A stretch of 64,000 nucleotides of DNA from Gonapodya prolifera JEL478 (Eukaryota > Monoblepharomycota > Monoblepharidomycetes > Monoblepharidales > Gonapodyaceae). Both the position numbers and the translations under genes were made by a program. Of the stretch, positions 24,610 through 47,540 are shown piece by piece. The stretch lies in NCBI GenBank assembly GCA_001574975.1, contig KQ965781.1, forward strand, positions 230,439-294,438. The letters are read 5' to 3'. The notes under the pieces are model-generated. The model saw nothing but the letters and a program-made list of their open reading frames with translations, was not told the origin of the DNA and made no database searches. The number at the start of each line of letters is the position of its first letter. Positions within the stretch are counted from its first letter, which is position 1.

Positions 24610-26657
24610 ATGTCGTCCACTTCATCCACCCTCGCTTCAGAGTTCATTGAATTTGTCTCGAATGTTTGTTCCTCCCCTCTGTCGGATCTCTTAATGCCCA
24701 CTCACCTGTTTCTTCCTTGGCATCAATCTTCGTTCAATTACAACCCAAACGGTTCACTCACAACCGTAGTCTCCGTCTCCGTTCCACGCAGTCGCAAATG
24801 CCAAGAGACTGCTGACCTCTTCTGGGTTCGTAGAGATTCGCGAACGTGACAGTTGGTCCGGGAAGCTTGTCGCTGGTGGCAAATACTTCTTCACTCGGTA
24901 AGCGAACCGGCATGCAGAGTCGAGCCTCCCTCATCTTTCGTCACAACACTTCCCGCTTCCGTCCTTCTACAGCAACCACTCCTCCATCCTCGCATTCACG
25001 CTTCCGCCCACCTTCACCGCCTCCCGCCCATCATTCGCCATCTACGGCGCACACACAGACTCGCCCTGCTTCAAACTCAAGCCCATATCAAAGAAGGAGA
25101 AAGTAGGGTACCTCCAGGTCGGCGTTCAGACCTACGGCGGCGGGCTGTGGAATACCTGGTTCGATAGGGATTTGGGTATCGCGGGGAGAGTTGTCGTAGA
25201 GGGGAAGGAGGGAGACATTGAACACAAACTGGTGGACATCAGGAAGTGAGTTGCCTTTTGTACCGAGCCAGTAAATGCGACGTCTTATCGGGTTGGATCC
25301 GGACAGGCCAATACTTCGGATCCCAACCCTCGCCATCCACCTCGACCGCACAGTGGATAGCGAAGGGTTCAAATTCAATAAGGAGCTCCAGCTTCTTCCA
25401 GTCCTTGGCGCGGCAGCACAGAGCCCGGCACCTGCTGGTGCTGAAGTGAAGCAAGGTGCAGATGCAGCGTCAGCGTACAACAGACACCACAAGGTTCTCG
25501 TGGACCTCGTGGCGAGCGAGTGTGGAGTTGCGGGTGTGTTTTCGACTGTTGGATTCTTTGTCGCAAGCGATGTATTCGGGAAGATTGATACTAGAACTCT
25601 GTTTCTCTCAGCAAACCAGATCCTTGATTTGGACCTCTGCCTGTACGATATCCAGCCTGCCACCAGAGGAGGACTAGACGGAAAATACGTTTTTTCGGCG
25701 AGATTGGACAATCTTTGCATGTCGTGGTGCGGGTTGAAGGTAATTTGTGCGCCGTCCAGTAGGTCAAAAGTTTATGCTCCTAAACTGAGTCGTATCGTGG
25801 TAACAATTTTATCAGGCCCTCTCTCTCGACTCCGCGGCTGATAAGGCGTCCTCTTCTTCGGCCATCCGCATAGTGTCACTGTTCGATAACGAGGAGGTCG
25901 GTTCGATGTCTGCATATGGCGCGGACAGTCACTTCTTGGAAAGCTCTCTTCGAAGAATTTTGGCGGGTGCTGGAGCTACCGCGCAGGTGAGTTTGTTGGC
26001 GACGAGGACGTGGTGTATGTTGGTCCACTGAGACTGTTATGACTCATCTAATGTAGACTGCATTCGAAGAGTCGATTCATCGCTCTTTCCTCATCAGTGC
26101 GGATATGGCTCATGCCGTGCATCCGAACTACGCGTGAGTGGATTCGGGTTACGTCGGTTCGTTTGCTCGGTCATGGCCTGAGGTATGAAACTGCGCCCGA
26201 TCACCTTTTTCTGTCGATTGTGACAATAGCGACAAGCACGAAGAGCTCCACCGCCCACAGATAAACAAGGGACCGGTGATTAAGACAAATGCAAACCAGC
26301 GGTACGCCACAACAGGTGTCACAGCGGCAGTCATCAGGAAGTTGGGAAAGAAGGTCGGAGTGCCCGTGCAGGTGAGCCTTCAAACTCATAGCTTACTTCA
26401 ACATATTATTGTAACTCTATCCATCGGACAAGGAATTCGTGGTGCGCAATGACTCGCCTTGCGGCTCTACGATCGGGCCCCTTCTTTCAGCGAAACTCGG
26501 GTTACGTACAGTCGACCTCGGAAACCCCCAACTGTCTATGCACAGTATTCGCGAGATGGGCGGCGTCGAGGATCTTTCCCACACCGTGGCATTGGTGACG
26601 GAGTATTTTGGTAGCTGGGAAGATATTGATCAGGAAGTTGCTGGTGCCGCGTTGTGA
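24610..26657 (+). CDS. aspartyl aminopeptidase (peptidase family M18)
   Basis: Nine exons: 24610-24663, 24770-24897, 24973-25245, 25307-25533, 25612-25740, 25816-25986, 26057-26133, 26230-26371 and 26433-26657. All M18 landmarks are rebuilt by splicing: SPSPFHAVANAKRLL near the N-terminus, GAHTDSPCFKLKP (first zinc ligand), YGGGLWNTWFDRDL, FDNEEVGSMSAYGADS (catalytic and bridging acids), ADMAHAVHPNYADKHEE, NDSPCGSTIGP and MHSIREMGG (last zinc His). The family removes N-terminal Asp or Glu from peptides as a large cytosolic oligomer; yeast relatives include Ape4 and the vacuolar Ape1. No vacuolar propeptide is visible, so a cytosolic DNPEP-like enzyme is more likely. The start ATG 24610 follows about 200 bp of spacer after the oligoribonuclease stop. 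Confidence 0.93.
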
Positions 26658-37606: not shown

Positions 37607-38367
37607 ACGTGGTGGGCGGACTAGGCCCCGGCCTCTCGCTTCGCACCTCCCGCGGGCCTCCTCGCCTCCTCCACCTCACCCCACAACCCTGACACCCCTT
37701 CGACCCCATCACCACCACAACAACAAATACCAGTTTTGAAACCCACACGATACACCAGATACCTACATACCTTCCTGTGGACTTCCACCCCGGCGGCCAT
37801 TCAGAGCACTCCTCTTCGGGCTCTTTGGCACGCGCGGGATGGGCTTTTCGTTTCTGTACCAGTTCATGTTCATGCCATCATCATGTAGATTAGACACACG
37901 TTCCGCGCCTCGGCGACCCAACCACCCGCTTCCCTTCCCTCGTCTCTCGTTCGGCCTGGCGTTTCGCTTCGGGTGCCACGAGTCGGACGGTCGGGTGGGA
38001 CGGGTGGGACCGCCTTTGTTTAAAAGTTGATGTGGGGCGGGTCTGTCCCTGTATTATACATACTTTAGGAAAGATCTTTCTTTGAATATCGACTTTGTGC
38101 ACATATTCGGGGCTTTCCAGTTATTTTCCGTCATTCGATCTTTCTCTTTTCATAATCTTTTTACTTCTTCTACTTCTACTTGATATGTATAACGTCAACT
38201 GAACGATGGCGTGTCGTGGTCTGCATTTCATGTGTGGGGAGATAATTCAGCGTGGGATTCTTTGGCCTTTTTACGGTGTCAGGAGTTAGGTTATTTTGAT
38301 TTTGGTGGTTGTGGGGCAACTCTTGGAACTCTCTTTCAAAGATAATCTGGGGATGCTGGGGAGCTGT
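37607..38367. other. intergenic region at the left edge of the atypical island
   Basis: Composition changes here from G+C-rich to visibly A+T-rich at about 38040. No gene, no RNA gene, no inverted terminal repeat was recognised. The exact left border of the island cannot be placed by eye. Confidence 0.4.
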
Positions 38368-39975
38368 TCATGATCTCAAATGTTTTATTGAACTTTCCTT
38401 GAGGACTAGTTCAACCTTTGCCTTGATTTTAGGGTCCCAAACATAGTATGCATCTTTGAAGCAAAGAACAAAGGCATAATAGTAAGCATGATTCTGTGAC
38501 AATCCCATCCTGTGCATAAAATGTAAGGCATCTGACAGGGTAAGGCTCTTTCCATAATAAACTGGCTCTTGAATACTTTTGAAAGCACTATCCATCTGAA
38601 TATCCCCATTCTGAGAACTCTGCACCAGAATGTCATCTGAAACCAGTGGTATGTGGAAATCTACTGCCCTAACTAGTGTCCTTTTGTCTACAAGTAAGAG
38701 GAAGGGAACAACTTGATGTGATTCAAATTCACCCAGAGTAGCTGTTTTTGAGGGGATATGGAGCTTTAACACTAGTTGCAAGAACCTCATCCACTTTGAT
38801 TATAGCTCTTTGACCAGTGACATGGTACTTGGCCCTTTCTATCCATTTTGTGGGAGCTTGTTTGTCTATGGTTCTGAACCCACTTGTCACACTGACATCC
38901 ACTAACGTGGAGTATATAGTGTAGTATGAGTGTTGGGTATTAGCTGCTGTGCCACTACTGTGGCCGTGGGTTTAGATGTGCACACCTGCAGGACGTGCCC
39001 TAAGTTTGGCATCACGTTCCTGCAGGTGAGTTCTATGCACATTACGTCTTGCTATGTACATCTGATCATATATACACGTTCCTGCAGTTTACAGGCTCGT
39101 GCAGCTCACCTAGGTTGTGTAGCACCACTGTGTGTAAAGTTCCCTTGGCTGCAACAATTCTGCCAAAAGTCCCAGCACTTGTGATAAACTCCACTTTTGA
39201 TCCCACTATCATTAAATCTGGCCTCTGGTCTAAAGTTTCATGGATATTAAGTACAGGAATGTCCCAAGCAATCCTATTTACATCAAGTGATCTGGAAACA
39301 TCACAAGCCACATAATTTCTCATTTCAATTGGAAGATCTTTCAGAACTGTGCTGGACCATTGTGGATTTATCCAAAGAGTAGGGCTCTTATCCAGGTGAG
39401 CATTTAGGACACTTTTAACAAGGTCTTCTAAGCTGGCATTTGCACATTGGGAGAGACCCTTCTTGAAGCAGAAGCTACCAATATCTAACAGAGAACTTTG
39501 AGGAATTCCACACTCCAATCCTTGCTGCGCTTTTGAGCATCTCCCCCAATTTGCTTCCAACTTTCAGAACATCATTCCTCTCCAGAAATTTTTGAAGAGA
39601 TTGGCAGAACTTTTTTACTCCCCTGAGATCAAAAAGCCAAACTTCTCCATTTGGAGTTGCAATTTGTATCATGGAAACTTTTCCAATAATAGGTGGTTGA
39701 CCATAGTCTCCAAATGTAACTCCCCATTCCATGTCCAGAGCAATATAATATGAAGTAGGGATGGGATCAAGAGGTGAAGGTCCAATAACACCACCAGTGA
39801 TGATGTGAGAAATTTTTTTCAACCTCATCTGCAAAGTTCCTTTGCTCAGGAATATAATATGGCACAGAGCAATGCATCTTATAGCTTTTCTGTAAGCATG
39901 GTGGCAAAAACAGAGATCATTGATCCAGCTAATGGAGTAGTTTGAGATGAAAGGGACCCATCTAAATTCTATCAT
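38368..39975 (-). pseudogene. decayed DEDD 3'-5' exonuclease-like gene
   Basis: Minus strand. The 39475-39975 frame has the exonuclease fold start YYIALDMEWGVTFG (Exo I Asp-x-Glu) and KVSMIQIATPNGEVWLFDLR, then DVLKVGSKLGEMLK, where Exo II normally has Asp. One base later in another frame the protein resumes with LLDIGSFCFKKGLSQCANAS and SLEDLVKSVLNAHLDKS. It continues to MRNYVACDVSRSL, like the Exo III 'YAAxDVxxxL'. A further frame change near 38740 links DEVLATSVKAPYPL to a C-terminal segment (LSDALHFMHRMGLSQNHAYY) ending at 38368. The domain order resembles RNase D/EXD-type proteins with an extended C-terminus. At least two or three frame changes without good introns indicate decay or poor sequence. 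Confidence 0.6.
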
Positions 39976-40172
39976 GCAATCAAAATATTAGAAAGTCATT
40001 AATTATGATTAAAGAAAAGTGCTCTCACCCCATGCCATTTTGATTAACTTGACGCATATTGCTACTGTTAAAAATAGAGAAAAGGCTTTGCCTTTGGGAT
40101 GTTTGTTTGCTGTTAGATCCAGTTTGTAAACTTCTTTTGGCTTATCATTTTTGTTCAAGTTGGAAGGACTGG

Positions 40173-40460
40173 CTCTTAAGTTTGGTAACAAACAGCCATT
40201 TAAATTACTTTGTGCTGCAAACAGAGAGCCCTTCAAACTGCTTTGAGCTTTAGCATTTGCATTTAAATTTGGAAGAGCCAGAACTTAGATTAGGTAATGG
40301 AGAACCATTTGAATTACTTTGAGCCACAAAATAAAGAGCCATTCAGACTGCTTTGAGCTGGAGCATTTACATTCAATTTAGAAGATATAGTTCCTGAGTT
40401 CAGCAATAAAGAGCCATCTGAATTACTTTGAGCTGCTGATGAAAGGTCATCTAAACCACT
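40173..40460 (-). repeat. ~110-bp tandem repeat, about 2.5 units
   Basis: Units start near 40173, 40283 and 40394, each beginning with a form of 'tta/gtt.ggtaa' and containing two copies of a shorter 'actttgagc' block. On the minus strand each unit reads Ser/Asn/Gln-rich text such as AQSNSDGSLLLN and APAQSSLNGSLF. This suggests expansion of a low-complexity coding linker of the exonuclease-like gene. Units differ by substitutions and small indels that change frame. Confidence 0.65.
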
Positions 40461-40568
40461 TTGAGCTTCCAACTGTAGTTGCAAAGAGTAATCTGCTACC
40501 AAAATTCCAGATAAAAGGTTTTGATCATCAAAGTTTGCTTCAGAGCTGCTTATAGTTGATATGGTATT

Positions 40569-41460
40569 TCACAAAGAATCTTTAGGAGCTAAACCTGCTT
40601 GAACAGCATTTTTGGGAGCTAAGTTGGCCAATGTAGAGCTCCTTCCATTCAAGCTTGACTGTAAAGAGCTTTCCATTATGGTATCAGTGACCACAGAGGT
40701 TTCTGGAAAGGCATTCTCTCTGATTGATTGATTTTCAGTTGAGAAAAGCTGTCTTTTCAAAGTATAAACATGTTCATGTAAAATGTGAGATGGTGGTATG
40801 CCTAAAACAGGATATTGCAGACTTAAATGTATAGAATTAAGATTTAGCAATTGCTGAGATGCATTTGCCTTTGTTATCAAAGCAAGATAAATAATAATTT
40901 CTTTCAAAGCTTTCAGTGCCACTAACCTTGCAAGCACTGGGATCAATGTCTTCCATCATAATATCATCATTCTGGTGGAAGCTTGGATTAACAGTGATAT
41001 AATTGTTCTGGTGCCCATCCATTTGCACATTAGCTAGCTTTCTGCATTCTGTTATCAATAGCAACAGCTTGTGAAGAGCTCTGCAGCAAAGTATAATCTA
41101 GTAGTGGAACATCAATATCAGCCAAATCATTGTTTCTGTTGTCAATCTCCACATCAGATATGACCCCAGCCACACTGGCATCCACAATTGGTTTTGGTTG
41201 TAAGTGAGAGAGAATGGATGACTTTGCATCAATAAGTCATGCTTCTTCATTCCAATCAATTCTGCCTTCATGGCCTTTGAAAATTTATTTTTCCTTCCCT
41301 GACCATGACCAGCACCCCCCCTTTCCACTACTTGATTGATTTGTGCTTCCTTGTTTTGGTCCATGCTTCCTGTTGATGTAACGCATGCAAAATGTATTTC
41401 CAGATAATAAGTGAAGTGGTGGTGCATACATTGATAATGAGACAAGAAGCCAGGAACCAA
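40569..41460 (-). pseudogene. coding-like fragments upstream of the exonuclease relic
   Basis: Minus-strand frames read a basic segment (GQGRKNKFSKAMKAELIGMK), then DASVAGVISDVEIDNRNNDL, then FHQNDDIMMEDIDPSACK, then RQLFSTENQSIRENAFPETS. They lie in the right order and strand to be the N-terminal, low-complexity part of the exonuclease-like protein. Frames change between them; introns are possible but not convincing. No known domain. Confidence 0.4.
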
Positions 41461-41710
41461 TGAGAGATGGTCACGGATACTACTGCTGCAAGAATTTTCG
41501 CAAAATTATATGCAAATGCAAGTGCAGGCTAAGGAGTAATTGTTCAGAGAGTTGCACATCAAGAAACCACAGACTTCACTGAAAATCACTCATCCTTTGC
41601 AGTTATCACAGTAATACAATGAAAAACATTAGAATTCATGTTAGAGAGACACCATTCTTCCTTTTTGTGGTGATGTGTAGTATTGTGATGATGATTCCGT
41701 GTTTTCAATT

Positions 41711-42415
41711 TCATGAACTACAACCAAGATAAAATTCACAACGATGCAAGATAACACTGATTTGATCTTGAATGCAAAATTTCATTGGGATTAGACAGCA
41801 GGTAGATGAAAGATTGATGAAGAAGAATCGTAAGCCATTGAAACATCTTAAGGAAACAGCTGAACACGTATTACAACACTTACCAGCAATTCTCCCACAA
41901 AGTACAGTATCTACGGCTCCAGTTTTCACCAGAAAGTTGTCATCTTTTGTCTTCCACAGCAGCAAGTGGTGTTTACAGATACGCACTCCACAACTAGAAG
42001 AACCACAAGCGCACCACCAGTGCGGCTTAGGGAAATTAAAGACGGTTTTTTGAGAGTCCGTATTCCAAATTTCAGAGAGATTGGGCAAGCAGTTGCATAG
42101 AAAATAATATTTGACAGGGACAATTGACCCCACTGACTGACTGACCCCCNCCCTCCTGACATAGCCATACAGCCGATTCTTTGTATGCAGCTTTTGGGAG
42201 AGGCCTGAAGCCTGAGTAATGCCTGTATGCTTAATATGACTCTGACCCTCTGTGTGACCATCCTTGATCCCTCTTTTGTGTGTTGAACAATGCACATAGT
42301 ATGACGTTTCATGGTTTCTATTGGGTGGTGGTGCAACGCAGAGGTTTTTAAAAGATTGTTGGAAGAGCTGGCATGAATGTTGACTTTGAACATATACACC
42401 GCTTTCCACAACCAT
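41711..42415 (-). pseudogene. fragment with SWIM-like zinc finger
   Basis: A 234-codon minus-strand frame containing CACGSSSCGVRICKHH at about 41966-42013. The spacing (CxC, about nine residues, CxH) fits the SWIM zinc finger found in MULE transposases, SWI2/SNF2-related and other DNA-associated proteins. Upstream Cys/His pairs (YYVHCSTHKRGIKDGH) may be a second zinc site. The undetermined base at 42150 falls inside the frame, and an alternative frame starting at 42465 is also open. No catalytic triad of a MULE transposase was found, so its role is unknown. Confidence 0.45.
42150..42150. other. undetermined base (n)
   Basis: Single ambiguous base in a C-rich run next to a short 'ctgactga' tandem. 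The only such base in the window; it marks local sequence uncertainty. Confidence 0.99.
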
Positions 42416-42469
42416 GTTTCTTTCTGTCTCATAACCAGATACACTTCTTGCTTTTTGACAGGCAAATTT

Positions 42470-44560
42470 TTTTTAGCTGGCTCTTAAGGAGATGTCGCGC
42501 CACAAATGGGGGTCTGGGTTCTGTTGTTGCATATTTGGAGGGCAGACTTACAGTAGGATACTTTGAGTATCTACTTTCTGCACACTTGGCGCTTTCCATT
42601 TTCCCATTTCCAAAATGTTTTTCTTTGAACAGTGTCAAATATTATTCAGCTTATCATGGGATCATTTACAATAATGCACTAGGAGGGTCGGCTTTGCTCT
42701 CAAGGCTTTTTAGGAGAGTCATGTCCTTTTGTCGTCCTTTCCATATACCACAGTACTACATGCAGCTGTAATCGTTAACCTCTCCTGCGTTGATGAGCGC
42801 TTATTCTCGTTCAACATAAAATGAAGTACAGCATGTGGTCTGCAATGAATGTGGGGTGGCGGGGGGTGGGTGGTTGCGTGCAAACGTCATTTTCCTGATG
42901 TTTTTTTGTGGCAGAGGCGTGAAGATCTCATTTGTGGGCACACATGCCGTTCTCTACTTGACTTTTAGCCAATCTTTGTTATATTTATGATGCTCTTTGT
43001 GTTTGAATGTTGCTCATAGGGGGGGGGGGGGGGCGCCAACGCCAAGTAATGAATGACGTGTCCACCATTCTAGTCTGCACTTTGCGTTTTGGAACAACGC
43101 GTGGTGCAATGTTTTCCAACACATTATGAAGAGGCTTGAATTCACATTTTTCTGCTCTTGGATGTTTTTGTTTGTTTGTACTCATTGCGTATCTAATTGT
43201 TGTCCTGTGCTTATTTTTGTAGCCCAATAAAAATGGCCGCCATATTGTAGGACCTGGATTTTCAGGTGCTGTGCCATGTGTGTCTTTTTTGGAGCTTTTT
43301 GGGACAGGTCTAATTGAATATCATCTCTAAGTACTATCCAAGAATACCTGCAAGGTTTTCTGTCTGTCGTCCTGTGTTTTGGGACAAGTCTGAATATTGC
43401 CTCTATGTTGATAATTGTTTGTAGTATTTCCCCACTGATTGGTTGCGCTTCTCCAATGGGACAAAAACTTTGCATTCTGCACCAATCATTTCGTTACTGT
43501 ACCAGACATTGCTTGGCTCTGGCTTTACGTAAGCAATGGTGCGTGCACAAAAAATGGATCTCAAATTACTGTTTCAACGCTATGCCCTCCGTGCGGCAAT
43601 TCCTAGGTCAGAGAGATCTGAGATGTATCTTGCAACCGCGTTGGGGAGGTGTGCAGTTTCCAACAAGTTTAGGAGATTAGGCTTGGGCATTTACGCATTG
43701 AGAAATGTCTTCCGATCCTCAAGATCAATCTGACCTGCCATTTGCCTCCCGCCTTGCTACCCGTCTGTGTAAAGCATCAAAATTGCTTGCATGGTTTGCT
43801 TCAACGAGTTGAACTTGGGAACCATGTCAGACGTCAAGTGTTGCATAACGTATTCAGCAAATCCACATCACATGCGTTTAGATGTGGCATGGCACTGTGC
43901 AGACTGCAGACCTTTTGGTGTGTTTTTGGGGGACACTGGAATAATACGCCAGTTTATTCCTGGTCATGACTCTAAATCGACTTCCCATCTCACCTCAAAT
44001 ACTACGTTACTTCAACATAGCTGTCTCCCAGCTTGGCAGTATCCCATTCACTCAAAAACATTGGAAATGGGTGTTCTGCAGTCTTTCTTCATCTGCATCA
44101 GAAGATAAGTAGTGGAATGCAGATGACGTGGTTGCTGCCATCCGGTCTGCAAATCATGCAGTAGATTTTGGTGTACAGTGAGGTCAACTCCATATGATTT
44201 TTGGGGAGAGACCTGAGTGACACTTTTTTGCACATCTTAGTGTTTGTGTGCCATGGCTGTCCAGTGTGCTGCCCACTTCTAAAAGATATGGTACAACTAA
44301 TACCAGTGTCGGTGCCTGGAAGAAAGGCTGTGTCCACTTAGGATGGTTTGTGAGAGGGCACAATCAGAGATGGGTCTGTGTATTTTGTGTGGAACTTTCT
44401 TGGTGATCGCGCAGTCACTAAAGAATACTTTAGGAGAGGCATGTGAGCACTTCAAGTGCTATTGATCACTCTCCACGGGTTTTTTGGGGGTTTTATCTTG
44501 TACACGCAACAGTGAACTGTTCCCCGGAAAGGGGTTTATAAATCATGTGTCTTTTGAGAC
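42470..44560. other. right part of the island, no supportable gene
   Basis: Contains only short frames, a 15-nt G run (43019-43033), and two 'gggaca.gtct' boxes near 43300 and 43380. No domain, RNA gene or terminal repeat recognised. Confidence 0.4.
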
Positions 44561-44633
44561 ATTTTACTTCCCCACCAAATATTTCAAACAGATACAAAAC
44601 CAGGAATGCACAAAAGAAGACCTGACAGAAACA

Positions 44634-45392
44634 CTATTTGCTATTCGGCCCCGGCTGGTCCCACCCTCTCAACCGACAATGAACCCTCGCGAGCGCCACC
44701 ATGTAATCCTGCGACGTCTTCCCATACCCCGTATCCAAACTCTCCACCAAAAACCTCCTCGCACCCTCACTCGTCGGCCCCTCATGAGCTTCCCACCACA
44801 ACCCGACGTACAACTTGGCATAAAACGAGTCGTGCCCGTCCGTGTCCCTCGCAGCATCCAGAATCGCTTGCGGTATCGCGTCGGGGTTGTGAAAGACATC
44901 GTATACTGCTCTCATGACGGGTCGTGGGTCTTGACCAACGTGCAGCCATCGAGAGCGAGCAACGGATGGGTTGTACATGCGAGAAAGGCAGAGGAAGTGC
45001 CAGACAGATTCTTCAGTGTCATTTGGGTTGTCTGGTGGGTGTCGTCGGGTCGGCAATGCCCATCAGACCGACCGCTCGAGGCGAAATCTGAACAGAGACA
45101 CTCAACAGCTCACGTCAATGGCAAATTGCTCAGCGCCGTCTTGGAACCTGTCCGCGTAGTACAAGCTCAGGCCTCTTTGCCCTTCAAAAGATAAAGTCGA
45201 TTTGAAATTGAACTTCCATCCTACTCGACCACCACGCACGTGCTCGTTTCTCTCGGACCAATAAAACTCACACAGTCTGGGACGAATCTTCGGGTCCAGT
45301 CGCATCGCGTCGTCAAACGCGCGGATCGAGGCTGCGATGTCCCCCCCTACAAAGAGCCGCATTCCGCGGGTTACCAGTTCCGAGGCGGACAT
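44634..45392 (-). CDS. TPR-like repeat protein
   Basis: Minus strand, start ATG at 45392: ASELVTRGMRLFVGGDIAAS then FDDAMRLDPKIRPRL. An intron of about 90 bp leads to WQRGLSLYYADRFQDGAEQF (helix pair of a tetratricopeptide-type unit). A second intron leads to the last exon, DNPNDTEESVWHFLCLSRMY, QDPRPVMRAVYDVFHN, SFYAKLYVGLWWEAHEGPTS and a TPR-like end before the stop at 44634. Proteins of this layout occur in algae and other eukaryotes and bind partners through TPR helices; function unknown. The second junction is off by one base in my reading, so its exact site is uncertain. Flanks the island directly. Confidence 0.65.
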
Positions 45393-47540
45393 TGTCGAGG
45401 CTTCTTGGTGAGAAGTGGTCTCGGTGTGTCCCGATGACTGATGTAAGGCTGGTTGTGTCGATGCGATAGCAATCCTCGGCCGCTGTGGACGTTCCCTGCC
45501 TCTGATGACCATTCACTAGCACTCTGGAACGAAAATTTTTGAACACATGCTGCCAGTCGAGTCCAGCCGGAATGGCAGGCCTTCAGTCTGGACCCGCTTA
45601 CCCTGCTCTTCTGACATATGACTGGACTGAGAAATTACGCAAAACCAACGCTGTCAGTTTGCATTTGGCCTCCACCGGTGCGAACAACGACTGCGCCTTG
45701 TGGACTCCCGTGAGCAGCAGGGCCTCAGAATCATATGTGGCACCACCGCGAAAACAGGCCTTCGGTTGGAGACGGCCCAAACACGCGTGCGGCGTCCAAA
45801 AATAAAAGGAGACCAGCTCACGTCGGATTTGCCTGGAATGTGTGTCGACTGTCGACTGTCAGCAGCACCAAACGAGCGGCAGTTGACGTCAATACACAAA
45901 ACAAGCTTGACACCAGGCGCAAGTGGAGCGGCGGACAACGTCCATGTTGTATAGAGCCCCACCGACCCCAGATACCGCCGTCCGTTGACGTCAAACCCCG
46001 CGCAAAGTTCCCCCGCTGTGGAACATTCGCGGTGACGTCCAAAGAAAAGCAAGAGGAGTGCGGGTATGTGTCCCCCGGCGATGTGTGGTCGGTGGTATTG
46101 CCCGGTGGTACAGTGGTCCCCAGCATGATGACATGGTCTTTGAGACGGCCTGCGCACACTCCGGTCCAGCTCGGCAATTCAAACATCAAGAAGCAGGTGG
46201 GAAGACTTGCATTAAGTCGTTTCCGCCACGGGATGGGCGACCTGCGTCGAAAGAGGTTGACGTCACGTACGCAACGGTTATGAAAGACCTTGTGATGGCA
46301 CCCACGGTACCATTACACACAAACCCGATTAAGAACAAAATTCGCCTTTCAGCCCTACCGAGCAGCTGAAGGAAGGAAATTAGGATGCCGGCGAGATATT
46401 ATAAAAGAGAGAAACATGATGTTGAGAGGTGTGCTTTATTGTAATAGGAAAATGGGTTTGGGTGATCAAGGGAAGGTGTTTCCGTGAGGGCTTCGGCGCG
46501 ACAGTGGAGTTGGACGATAATCGATGAATCCATTACTTTATTTCCTTCTCGAGGCGCCATCCACACGCTCGCGTCTACTATGGTTTGCATCCTTGCTGCC
46601 GCGTACTGACATAACTGGCTACGGCCTCACGCTACCAAAGTTACTCTATCGTGAATTAGCAAGTTGTTCCGTCGTTCTTAATGCTGATGGACTGAAGCTG
46701 GCTTGGAGGATGGAGCAACGAGACTTTGACGTGTAGCGAAATGTTTGAAGAGTACATTGGAATCCAGCAAGCACGTTGAACATGAGTGGTTGTTACAAAA
46801 TACAATTGCTTCGGTCAAGACAATATAATTCTCACTCCCGGAAGCCCCCATCACCGCGAAGGACACACGCCACAGACTGTCGTGACTACGGAGATTTGCA
46901 TTCAAGAGGCGGGACTCCCGTCAGTGCCGCTCCGCTCGTCTTATCGAGTTATGTACGGAGCAGTAATCGGAGGAGGACAGGACAGCACTGAAGAAGCCAA
47001 TTCCCCGACGAGTGAAGATACCGAAGGCGCCGCATCGAGCGAGATGCGACATGGGCTGTCGCTCGATTCATCGTCCGTGTCCCTGGGCCGTGAATACAGC
47101 GACGGTCGTGAGATGGGCAAGATATCGACAGCAGAATCACGCGGGTCCCATCGATTGCACGTCTACGCGTCCTCTGCTGCCACTGGCGTTGTGCTGACGA
47201 ACGCGGGATGTGCGACGACTTCCATATGTGGACACAATGGGACGCCACGTTACCGGGCGATGGAGAACGCGGGCTTGCAGGCAGCGGATTCCGTGCGAAG
47301 GCATGTTCAAACGTTTTTGTTATACTGTGGGCGTCGTGTTCAGGTGGAGACAAGGTCCGATGGCGACCGGTGCGGAGACGAGGTGCCCCCACTTTGCTCG
47401 ATTGCCGGGAACCCGCCGATTTGGTCGACGAAATCCGTGCGATGGACCGTTGAAACGTCTATTTAAGCTATAGACGTTGAGTTTGCGAAGCGGGAATGTC
47501 CGATGGTGAGTTTTGGTTGACATGTGAAAATTCTATGTAT
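45393..47540. other. unresolved stretch with coding-like fragments
   Basis: No model could be built. Minus strand, about 45820-46190: frames read PQRGNFARGLTSTDGGIWGR and DVNGRRYLGSVGLYTTWTLS, beta-rich in character. Minus strand 45598-45780: SEALLLTGVHKAQSLFAPVE. Plus strand 47208-47453: LPGDGERGLAGSGFRAKACS then SCSGGDKVRWRPVRRRG. These look more protein-like than chance, but have no matching neighbours, starts or known domains. They may be relics of two or three genes. Confidence 0.35.

What the first reader, a model, noticed from the sequence alone, without database searches (positions are those of the whole stretch)
38300..44560. Compositionally foreign island with a SWIM-like zinc finger and a DEDD exonuclease relic on one strand
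About 6 kb is clearly A+T-rich compared with both flanks, uses different codons, and is the only part holding an undetermined base. All its protein-like text between 38.37 and 42.47 kb lies on the minus strand in the order SWIM-like finger, basic/low-complexity linker, tandem repeat, 3'-5' exonuclease, extended C-terminus. If one gene, a SWIM plus DEDD exonuclease protein would be an unusual architecture. Horizontal transfer, an old mobile element or contamination all remain possible.
Basis: partly seen in the sequence, partly recalled or inferred. Interest (0 to 1): 0.75.

Follow-up and report, generated by a model that had tools for sequence, protein, structure and literature searches.

The report
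Decayed exonuclease-bearing Dada-like jumping gene
The odd A+T-rich patch in this fungal genome is mostly a broken DNA transposon of a known but little-studied kind (Dada-like, with a built-in DNA-trimming enzyme), and its strange composition looks like the decay of methylated repeats inside this genome rather than DNA from elsewhere.

Summary
The composition anomaly is real: GC 0.40 in the element against 0.53 in the flanks, and CpG observed/expected 0.0-0.4 outside the inserted LTR against about 1.05. Window 38264-42174 is one insertion, bounded by an exact 8-bp target duplication (GATTCTTT) and a 9-bp sub-terminal inverted repeat (TGTCAGGAG) 13 nt in from each end. It has two incomplete relatives in the same genome (contigs C7, C100) and two distant exonuclease paralogs (C117, C102). 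The exonuclease is real: a WRN-like domain, frame-broken here. It sits in a transposase-like frame (D1, D2 region, exonuclease, DxxH; the third acidic residue only in C7; partly read by eye), the layout Kojima and Jurka (2013) describe for Dada transposons of Laccaria and Ectocarpus. The window copy lost 2.2 kb of its 3' part and carries a solo LTR. The 'SWIM finger' is not supported. The composition need not be foreign: flanks of another repeat family here are equally CpG-poor (63 of 88 bins below 0.5), gene-found loci are not (0 of 70), a DNMT1 is encoded, and CpG decay is visible between copies. Insertion into an RNA gene, typical of Dada, was not found. New member of a known kind.

The parts
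38256..38263 (.). left target-site duplication GATTCTTT
   Evidence: identical to 42175-42182; the only other copy on the + strand of the 64-kb window is at 25552; such a match at two random points of the island (offsets of 1 allowed) in 45 of 200000 draws, draws closer than 500 bp skipped but counted
38264..42174 (-). Dada-like DNA transposon relic, 3911 bp, gene on the minus strand
   Evidence: ends shared with the C7 copy (left and right) and the C100 copy (right); right-end motif found at three places, all with 0 mismatches: here, C7, C100 (the reversed control pattern also gave 3 matches at up to 3 mismatches)
38277..38285 (+). left sub-terminal inverted repeat TGTCAGGAG, 13 nt from the end
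   Evidence: sequence
42153..42161 (-). right sub-terminal inverted repeat (CTCCTGACA on +), 13 nt from the end
   Evidence: sequence
42175..42182 (.). right target-site duplication GATTCTTT
38302..38302 (.). internal-deletion junction: joins sequence equivalent to L022:1662 and L022:3846 (about 2.2 kb of the 3' coding part missing)
   Evidence: BLASTN against the C7 copy: 30 bp at 97% on the left side, 111 bp at 82% on the right
40099..40128 (-). candidate first catalytic Asp region (YKLDLTANKH)
   Evidence: read by eye from the translation; paralog C117 has MAMDHTYK at the equivalent place (sequence printed, translated by eye); inference
39484..39771 (-). N-terminal half of the WRN-like exonuclease (ALDMEWG, Asp and Glu of the first motif)
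39125..39545 (-). C-terminal half of the exonuclease after a frame break (GGDAQKRSKDW; Tyr-x3-Asp candidate NYVACD)
38371..38799 (-). domain after the exonuclease with the DxxH motif (LSDALHFMHR, 38509-38538)
   Evidence: aligned with C117, C102 and C7
38885..39124 (+). solo LTR (TGTCAC...TAGCA) inserted in the gene, flanked by CCACT on both sides
   Evidence: 49 of the 60 rows are matches to this repeat (lower bound, 40 of 377 candidates scored); alignment of 15 copies
40190..40433 (-). 109-bp tandem repeat in the linker of the gene
41515..42174 (-). 5' end of the element (the supposed SWIM stretch): CpG-bearing in C7 and C100, CpG-decayed here
42150..42150 (.). undetermined base in a C tract; the C7 copy also has its only N beside a C tract near this place
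42183..44560 (.). rest of the island: no second copy in the genome, GC 0.44, CpG o/e 0.47, no recognised domain in the frames tested

Best explanation
Window 38264-42174 is a dead, internally deleted copy of a low-copy DNA transposon of the Dada type. When alive it would have cut itself out and pasted in by a DDE transposase (D, D, DxxH, E), with a WRN-like DEDDy 3'-5' exonuclease inserted in the transposase between the second Asp and the DxxH motif, presumably trimming cleaved 3' ends, and would have left an 8-bp target duplication. After insertion the copy lost about 2.2 kb, gained frame breaks and a solo LTR, and its 5' part lost CpGs, most likely by deamination of methylated cytosine; the coding body had lost them earlier. 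Shown: insertion borders, target duplication, sub-terminal repeats, copies, exonuclease homology, DxxH, CpG decay in the 5' part, a DNMT1-like gene. Inferred: that the protein is the transposase, that it moved by cut-and-paste, the role of the exonuclease, and that methylation is the cause of CpG loss.
For: Target duplication and sub-terminal repeats. Relatives C7 (76-97% in pieces) and C100 (84%). The same left end in C7 and the same right end in C7 and C100. Exonuclease. Layout in the C117 paralog: D1 MAMDHTYK, D2 VVAYTDIPVSDRSLLENKFPTL, exonuclease, DxxH VLADTFHxFHK; C7 adds QGTNAAEGWH and a Cys/His-rich tail. [quoted passage not shown] CpG: gene-found loci 0 of 70 bins below 0.5, LTR flanks 63 of 88; in the 5' part the window lost 11 of 15 CpGs shared by both other copies against 17 of 212 other C/G sites changed by the same transitions. 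DNMT1-like gene: RFD over cut-off, methylase over cut-off, two BAH matches below cut-off.
Against: No RNA gene at the insertion: no tRNA, no Rfam match at E<=1, no second copy of the empty site. DUF6729 found only in C117 and, below cut-off, in C102, not in the window/C7/C100 family. D1, D2 and E were recognised by eye, not by a profile; in the C117 stretch from D2 to DxxH Pfam finds only the exonuclease. The D2 position is not Asp in the window copy by my reading. The C7 target duplication is degenerate (CCATTTAC/CCATTCTG). Borders of C117 and C102 were not found. The Tyr-x3-Asp candidate of the window has no Tyr counterpart in C117. The structure model failed (mean pLDDT 39.6). No protein relative was found outside this genome. 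The coding body was CpG-free before the window and C7 copies parted, so decay after insertion explains only part of the composition.
Confidence: 0.78

Rival explanations
1. A DNA transposon of another or undescribed superfamily that also carries a WRN-like exonuclease, so only its mobility, not the Dada name, is right.
For: Target duplication is 8-9 bp rather than 6-7, no RNA-gene target, CCCC finger not seen in this family, DDE residues read by eye only.
Against: The exonuclease position between D2 and DxxH and the 9-bp sub-terminal repeats agree with the published Dada description; apparent 8-bp duplications are reported there too.
Confidence: 0.14
2. Foreign DNA: a horizontally acquired stretch or contaminant from a CpG-poor organism.
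For: GC and CpG differ sharply from the flanks; the coding body was CpG-free already in the common ancestor of the window and C7 copies (no CpG in either copy over four aligned blocks).
Against: Copies on three contigs, a solo LTR of the genome's own family inside with its own duplication, CpG poverty of other repeat-rich DNA here, visible CpG decay between copies.
Confidence: 0.07
3. A broken ordinary host gene with SWIM finger plus exonuclease.
For: PF01612 also matches on contigs C34, C79, C8, C39 and C60, which I take for host genes.
Against: Flanking duplication and shared ends, several partial copies, no SWIM match.
Confidence: 0.02

Closest known systems
Dada DNA transposons with DEDDy exonuclease (Dada of Laccaria bicolor and of Ectocarpus siliculosus), Kojima and Jurka 2013, PMC3706591 (parts 1-3 of 4 read)
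   Same: WRN-like exonuclease before DxxH, short sub-terminal inverted repeats, short target duplication, C-terminal Cys/His-rich tail (in C7), length about 5 kb in C7 without its LTRs.
   Different: Apparent 8-bp duplication, no RNA-gene target found, N-terminal CCCC finger not found in this family, three copies found and none complete; no direct sequence comparison with Repbase was possible.
PF20499 (DUF6729) plus PF02338 (OTU) protein of the distant paralog on C117
   Same: Exonuclease 45% identical (41% for C102), same domain after it with DxxH.
   Different: Carries an OTU protease-like domain and DUF6729 in front, neither found in the window copy.
WRN exonuclease domain (PDB 2fbt, 2e6l)
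   Same: Sequence match over the exonuclease.
   Different: No helicase found beside it; embedded in a transposase-like frame.

Membership tests
Dada DNA transposons | DDE transposase with D, D, DxxH, E | tested here: inconclusive
   DxxH aligned across window, C7, C117, C102; D1 and D2 seen by eye in C117; E only in C7; no profile match
Dada DNA transposons | in exonuclease-bearing members, DEDDy exonuclease between second D and DxxH | tested here: met
   order D2 (by eye), exonuclease, DxxH in C117; exonuclease then DxxH in the window
Dada DNA transposons | 6-7 bp target duplication (apparent 8 bp reported) | tested here: inconclusive
   8 bp exact (9 if the next G is counted) in the window; degenerate in C7
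Dada DNA transposons | no terminal inverted repeats, short sub-terminal inverted repeats | tested here: met
   TGTCAGGAG 13 nt from both ends; of the outer 13 nt, 6 match between the two ends, GGC at the very end among them (compared by eye)
Dada DNA transposons | insertion at a fixed site in tRNA or snRNA genes (members with definable ends) | tested here: not met
   no tRNA, no Rfam match, no second empty site
Dada DNA transposons | N-terminal CCCC zinc finger | tested here: inconclusive
   DUF6729 with Cys pairs in C117 and (below cut-off) C102, none found in the window family; that DUF6729 is the Dada finger is my inference
Dada DNA transposons | C-terminal CCHC zinc finger | tested here: inconclusive
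   Cys/His-rich tail in C7 (L022 about 2250-2400, by eye), deleted in the window
SWIM zinc finger (PF04434) | profile match with conserved CxCx(n)CxH | tested here: not met
   no match at E<=1; cysteine not conserved in C7 and C100
DEDDy exonuclease (PF01612, WRN type) | sequence match to the domain | tested here: met
   WRN E=0.009 for the window piece; PF01612 below cut-off for the joined window pieces, above it for C117
DEDDy exonuclease (PF01612, WRN type) | motifs D-x-E, D, Y-x3-D | tested here: inconclusive
   ALDMEWG, GGDAQK, NYVACD in the window pieces by eye; the third motif does not align with that of C117, which has no Tyr there

The most novel reading that the evidence does not exclude
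A fungal Dada lineage lived long as an active transposon inside a CpG-methylating genome: its coding body became CpG-free before its copies spread while its 5' 0.66 kb stayed CpG-bearing, as if the transposon kept an unmethylated, CpG-island-like promoter over a methylated body; and its OTU/DUF6729 sister line would make DUF6729 a signature of Dada transposases.
Probability: 0.2. Interest if true: 0.5.

Novelty: new member of a known kind. Interest (0 to 1): 0.33.

Why it matters
It turns a puzzling 'foreign' island into a readable case: a transposon relic with an exonuclease built into its transposase, a design that the 2013 Dada paper reports for Laccaria and Ectocarpus, here in another genome with borders defined. 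It also shows that an A+T-rich, CpG-less island need not be foreign, a trap for composition-based calls of horizontal transfer, and it suggests what DUF6729 proteins may be.

Tried and rejected
Rejected: SWIM finger. Rejected: foreign origin from composition alone. Led nowhere: protein search of a 674-aa joined C117 protein, no hit at E<=0.001 among the 7992 candidates scored; PDB search of the C7 E-motif piece and of the supposed SWIM stretch, 0 hits each at E<=10; Pfam on 10 frames of 42.4-45.2 kb, only one match, E=0.059 and below its cut-off; DNA search for a second copy of 42175-44650, only itself. Literature: DUF6729, 0 papers; OTU/exonuclease/transposon/Agaricomycetes and others, 5 of 6 terms, 0 papers; CpG depletion in fungi, 16 listed, of which I opened only passages of PMC7862722; new superfamilies with exonuclease domain, 3 listed, the Dada paper opened; KDZ/OTU/exonuclease, 5 listed, passages of PMC5718144 and PMC6431247 seen; Dada with OTU, an any-term search whose 5 listed of 96,498 were off topic; Dada in fungal genomes, 4 listed, none opened. 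So I do not claim that an OTU-bearing Dada is unpublished. The AlphaFold model of the C117 piece (6-row alignment) had mean pLDDT 39.6 and was not used. A scan for ends and target duplications around C117 and C102 gave no convincing pair; no control was run for it. Of six stops of C102 inspected against C117, one is a CpG-type change, four are not, and one faces an undetermined base, so CpG decay is not shown to be the main source of its stops. The codon-position test of the SWIM stretch proved weak: the exonuclease and DxxH pieces, taken as coding controls, are hardly more skewed (6/6/10 and 9/4/3).

The loci are samples fetched for other reasons, not a random draw: 10 gene-found and 18 LTR-found loci. 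Left out before that count were loci overlapping these, the exonuclease and DUF6729 loci on C117 and C102 (the element's own paralogs, which are CpG-poor), the C7 and C100 copies, and the LTR itself; L013 and L014 share about 0.3 kb. Copies C7 and C100 were compared with each other and with the window in aligned pieces over 100 bases only.
Full report
What is there. The window is C51:230439-294438 of an unnamed 47.56-Mb assembly in 207 contigs. Chitin synthase PF01644 gives 9 matches on five contigs and none in the 14 control genomes, so I take it as a fungus. GC falls to 0.36-0.49 per kb between 38 and 45 kb. From 38264 to 41514, leaving out the LTR, only 6 CpGs remain in 3011 bases; the flanks have 7.5 per 100 bases. 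If every CpG became TpG or CpA, GC would fall by about 7.5 points, somewhat more than half of the gap between 0.535 and 0.398; the rest must have another cause.

Borders. A DNA search of the island against its own genome found relatives on C7 and C100. Aligned in pieces, C7 is 76-97% and C100 84% identical outside the LTR; both end at window 42174 on the right, and C7 shares a short left end near 38264. Outside these ends lies GATTCTTT on both sides, at 38256-38263 and 42175-42182; two random points of the island gave such a match in 45 of 200000 draws. Thirteen bases in from each end is TGTCAGGAG in inverted orientation. The right-end motif occurs three times in the genome without mismatch: here, C7 and C100; the reversed control pattern also gave 3 matches at up to 3 mismatches, so it is the perfect matches at known copies that count. 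So 38264-42174 is one insertion of a low-copy element. Compared with C7, the window copy has joined the left end directly to the middle, losing about 2.2 kb at 38302, while C7 lacks the first half of the exonuclease (window 39499-40231 has no counterpart) and carries two LTR copies.

The gene. On the minus strand the exonuclease is read in two frames. The first part matches WRN exonuclease (2fbt, E=0.009); joined pieces reach PF01612 at E=0.0011, under the family cut-off. Own-genome paralogs on C117 (45%) and C102 (41%, with stops) make it firm: the C117 piece matches WRN at E=5.5e-9 and PF01612 at 2.5e-7. After the exonuclease, window, C7, C117 and C102 share a stretch that ends in D-x-x-H (SDALHFMH in the window, ADTFHxFH in C117). 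In front of the exonuclease C117 reads MAMDHTYK, an apparent intron, and VVAYTDIPVSDRSLLENKFPTL, which I read by eye as the first and second catalytic Asp of a DDE transposase. In C7 the gene goes on to QGTNAAEGWH and a Cys/His-rich tail; that this stretch holds the catalytic Glu rests on my memory of MULE-like transposases, not on a call. C117 also has an OTU domain (E=5.6e-6) and DUF6729 (E=1.7e-20) in front; neither is found in the window family.

The supposed SWIM finger. It lies in the 5'-terminal 0.66 kb of the element. No Pfam match at E<=1 and no PDB match at E<=10. Aligned with C7 and C100, a motif cysteine is arginine in both and there are 1-nt indels. Non-CpG substitutions by codon position are 19/19/27 (window-C7), 20/26/28 (window-C100) and 12/10/12 (C7-C100); but the exonuclease and DxxH pieces, window against C7, give 6/6/10 and 9/4/3, so this count alone cannot tell coding from non-coding here. 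The lone N sits in a C tract, and C7 has its only N beside a C tract at the same end, so it looks like a homopolymer problem rather than a seam.

Why it looks foreign. Around 18 places of the inserted LTR family, 63 of 88 bins of 500 bp have CpG o/e below 0.5 (median 0.23, GC 0.43); around ten loci found by gene families, 0 of 70 (median 0.95, GC 0.51). The genome encodes a DNMT1-like gene on C14 (RFD and methylase over cut-off, two BAH matches below it) and a second methylase piece, which I take for DNMT2, on C12; a review of fungal methyltransferases links DNMT1 with RFD to CG methylation and places methylation mainly in transposable elements (PMC7862722, passages seen). Between copies the change can be seen: in the 5' part, of 15 CpGs shared by C7 and C100 the window lost 11 to TpG or CpA and kept 4, against 17 of 212 other C/G sites (Fisher 1.3e-8); C7 lost 1 of 5 and C100 3 of 7. 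To be told beside this: C7 has CG at 6 places where both others have TG or CA, and the window also has more C-to-T type changes outside CpG (17 of 212) than C7 (4 of 197) or C100 (3 of 191). Against a purely recent decay: in four blocks of the body the window and C7 copies are 93-97% identical and both have no CpG, so the body was already CpG-free in their ancestor. This can mean long methylation of an active lineage, or arrival from a CpG-poor genome; I cannot separate them without relatives. The LTR at 38885-39124 looks like a later arrival: it holds 7 CpGs and has its own duplication CCACT (sequence).

What it is. Kojima and Jurka 2013 (PMC3706591; passages, parts 1-3 of 4) describe Dada transposons: DDE with DxxH, introns, N-terminal CCCC and C-terminal CCHC fingers, 6-7 bp duplications (some apparently 8), no terminal but short sub-terminal inverted repeats (9 bp in the U6 families), and, in Laccaria and Ectocarpus, a DEDDy exonuclease between the second Asp and DxxH. 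The element here agrees in exonuclease position and sub-terminal repeats, is open on the duplication length, the triad and the fingers, and fails on the RNA-gene target: no tRNA in five loci or at the joined site, no Rfam match at E<=1 in the same loci, no second copy of the empty site within 3 mismatches. I therefore call it Dada-like with confidence 0.78, and would drop the name, but not the transposon reading, if a tree disagreed.

What remains. 42183-44560 is CpG-poor (o/e 0.47) but without another copy in the genome, and with no recognised domain in the frames tested (10 frames from 42.4 to 45.2 kb). It may be an older decayed insertion or a methylated spacer. The left neighbour 38050-38255 is A+T-rich but not CpG-poor (o/e 1.25 in 206 bases), so on the left the CpG drop begins at the element's end.

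Noticed in passing
window 38885-39124: A 240-bp solo LTR family (TG...CA ends, 5-bp duplication in the copies checked by eye); 49 of the 60 rows match it, many at 97-100%, and its flanks are mostly CpG-poor.
   Followed up: partly
L038 5058-8877 (C117:135057-138876): Exonuclease gene with OTU and DUF6729 domains, CpG-poor yet with long open frames, followed by an N stretch of about 2.2 kb; may be the best-kept relative.
   Followed up: partly
L038 1348-2388: Copia-like retrotransposon polyprotein piece next to the C117 paralog (recognised by eye, no profile run).
   Followed up: no
window 42183-44560: CpG-poor stretch without another copy or recognised domains, with a run of about 15 G near 43020.
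   Followed up: partly
L022 6401-7095 and L023 774-1435: The 5' 0.66 kb of the C7 and C100 copies keeps CpGs (o/e 0.9 and 0.61) while parts of the coding body have none, a CpG-island-like pattern.
   Followed up: partly
L055 (C14:449500-455500): DNMT1-like gene with RFD and methylase domains and two BAH matches below cut-off.
   Followed up: partly
window 45102-45512: Minus-strand reading frame with a weak TPR match (E=0.0047, below cut-off), next to the right edge of the island.
   Followed up: no
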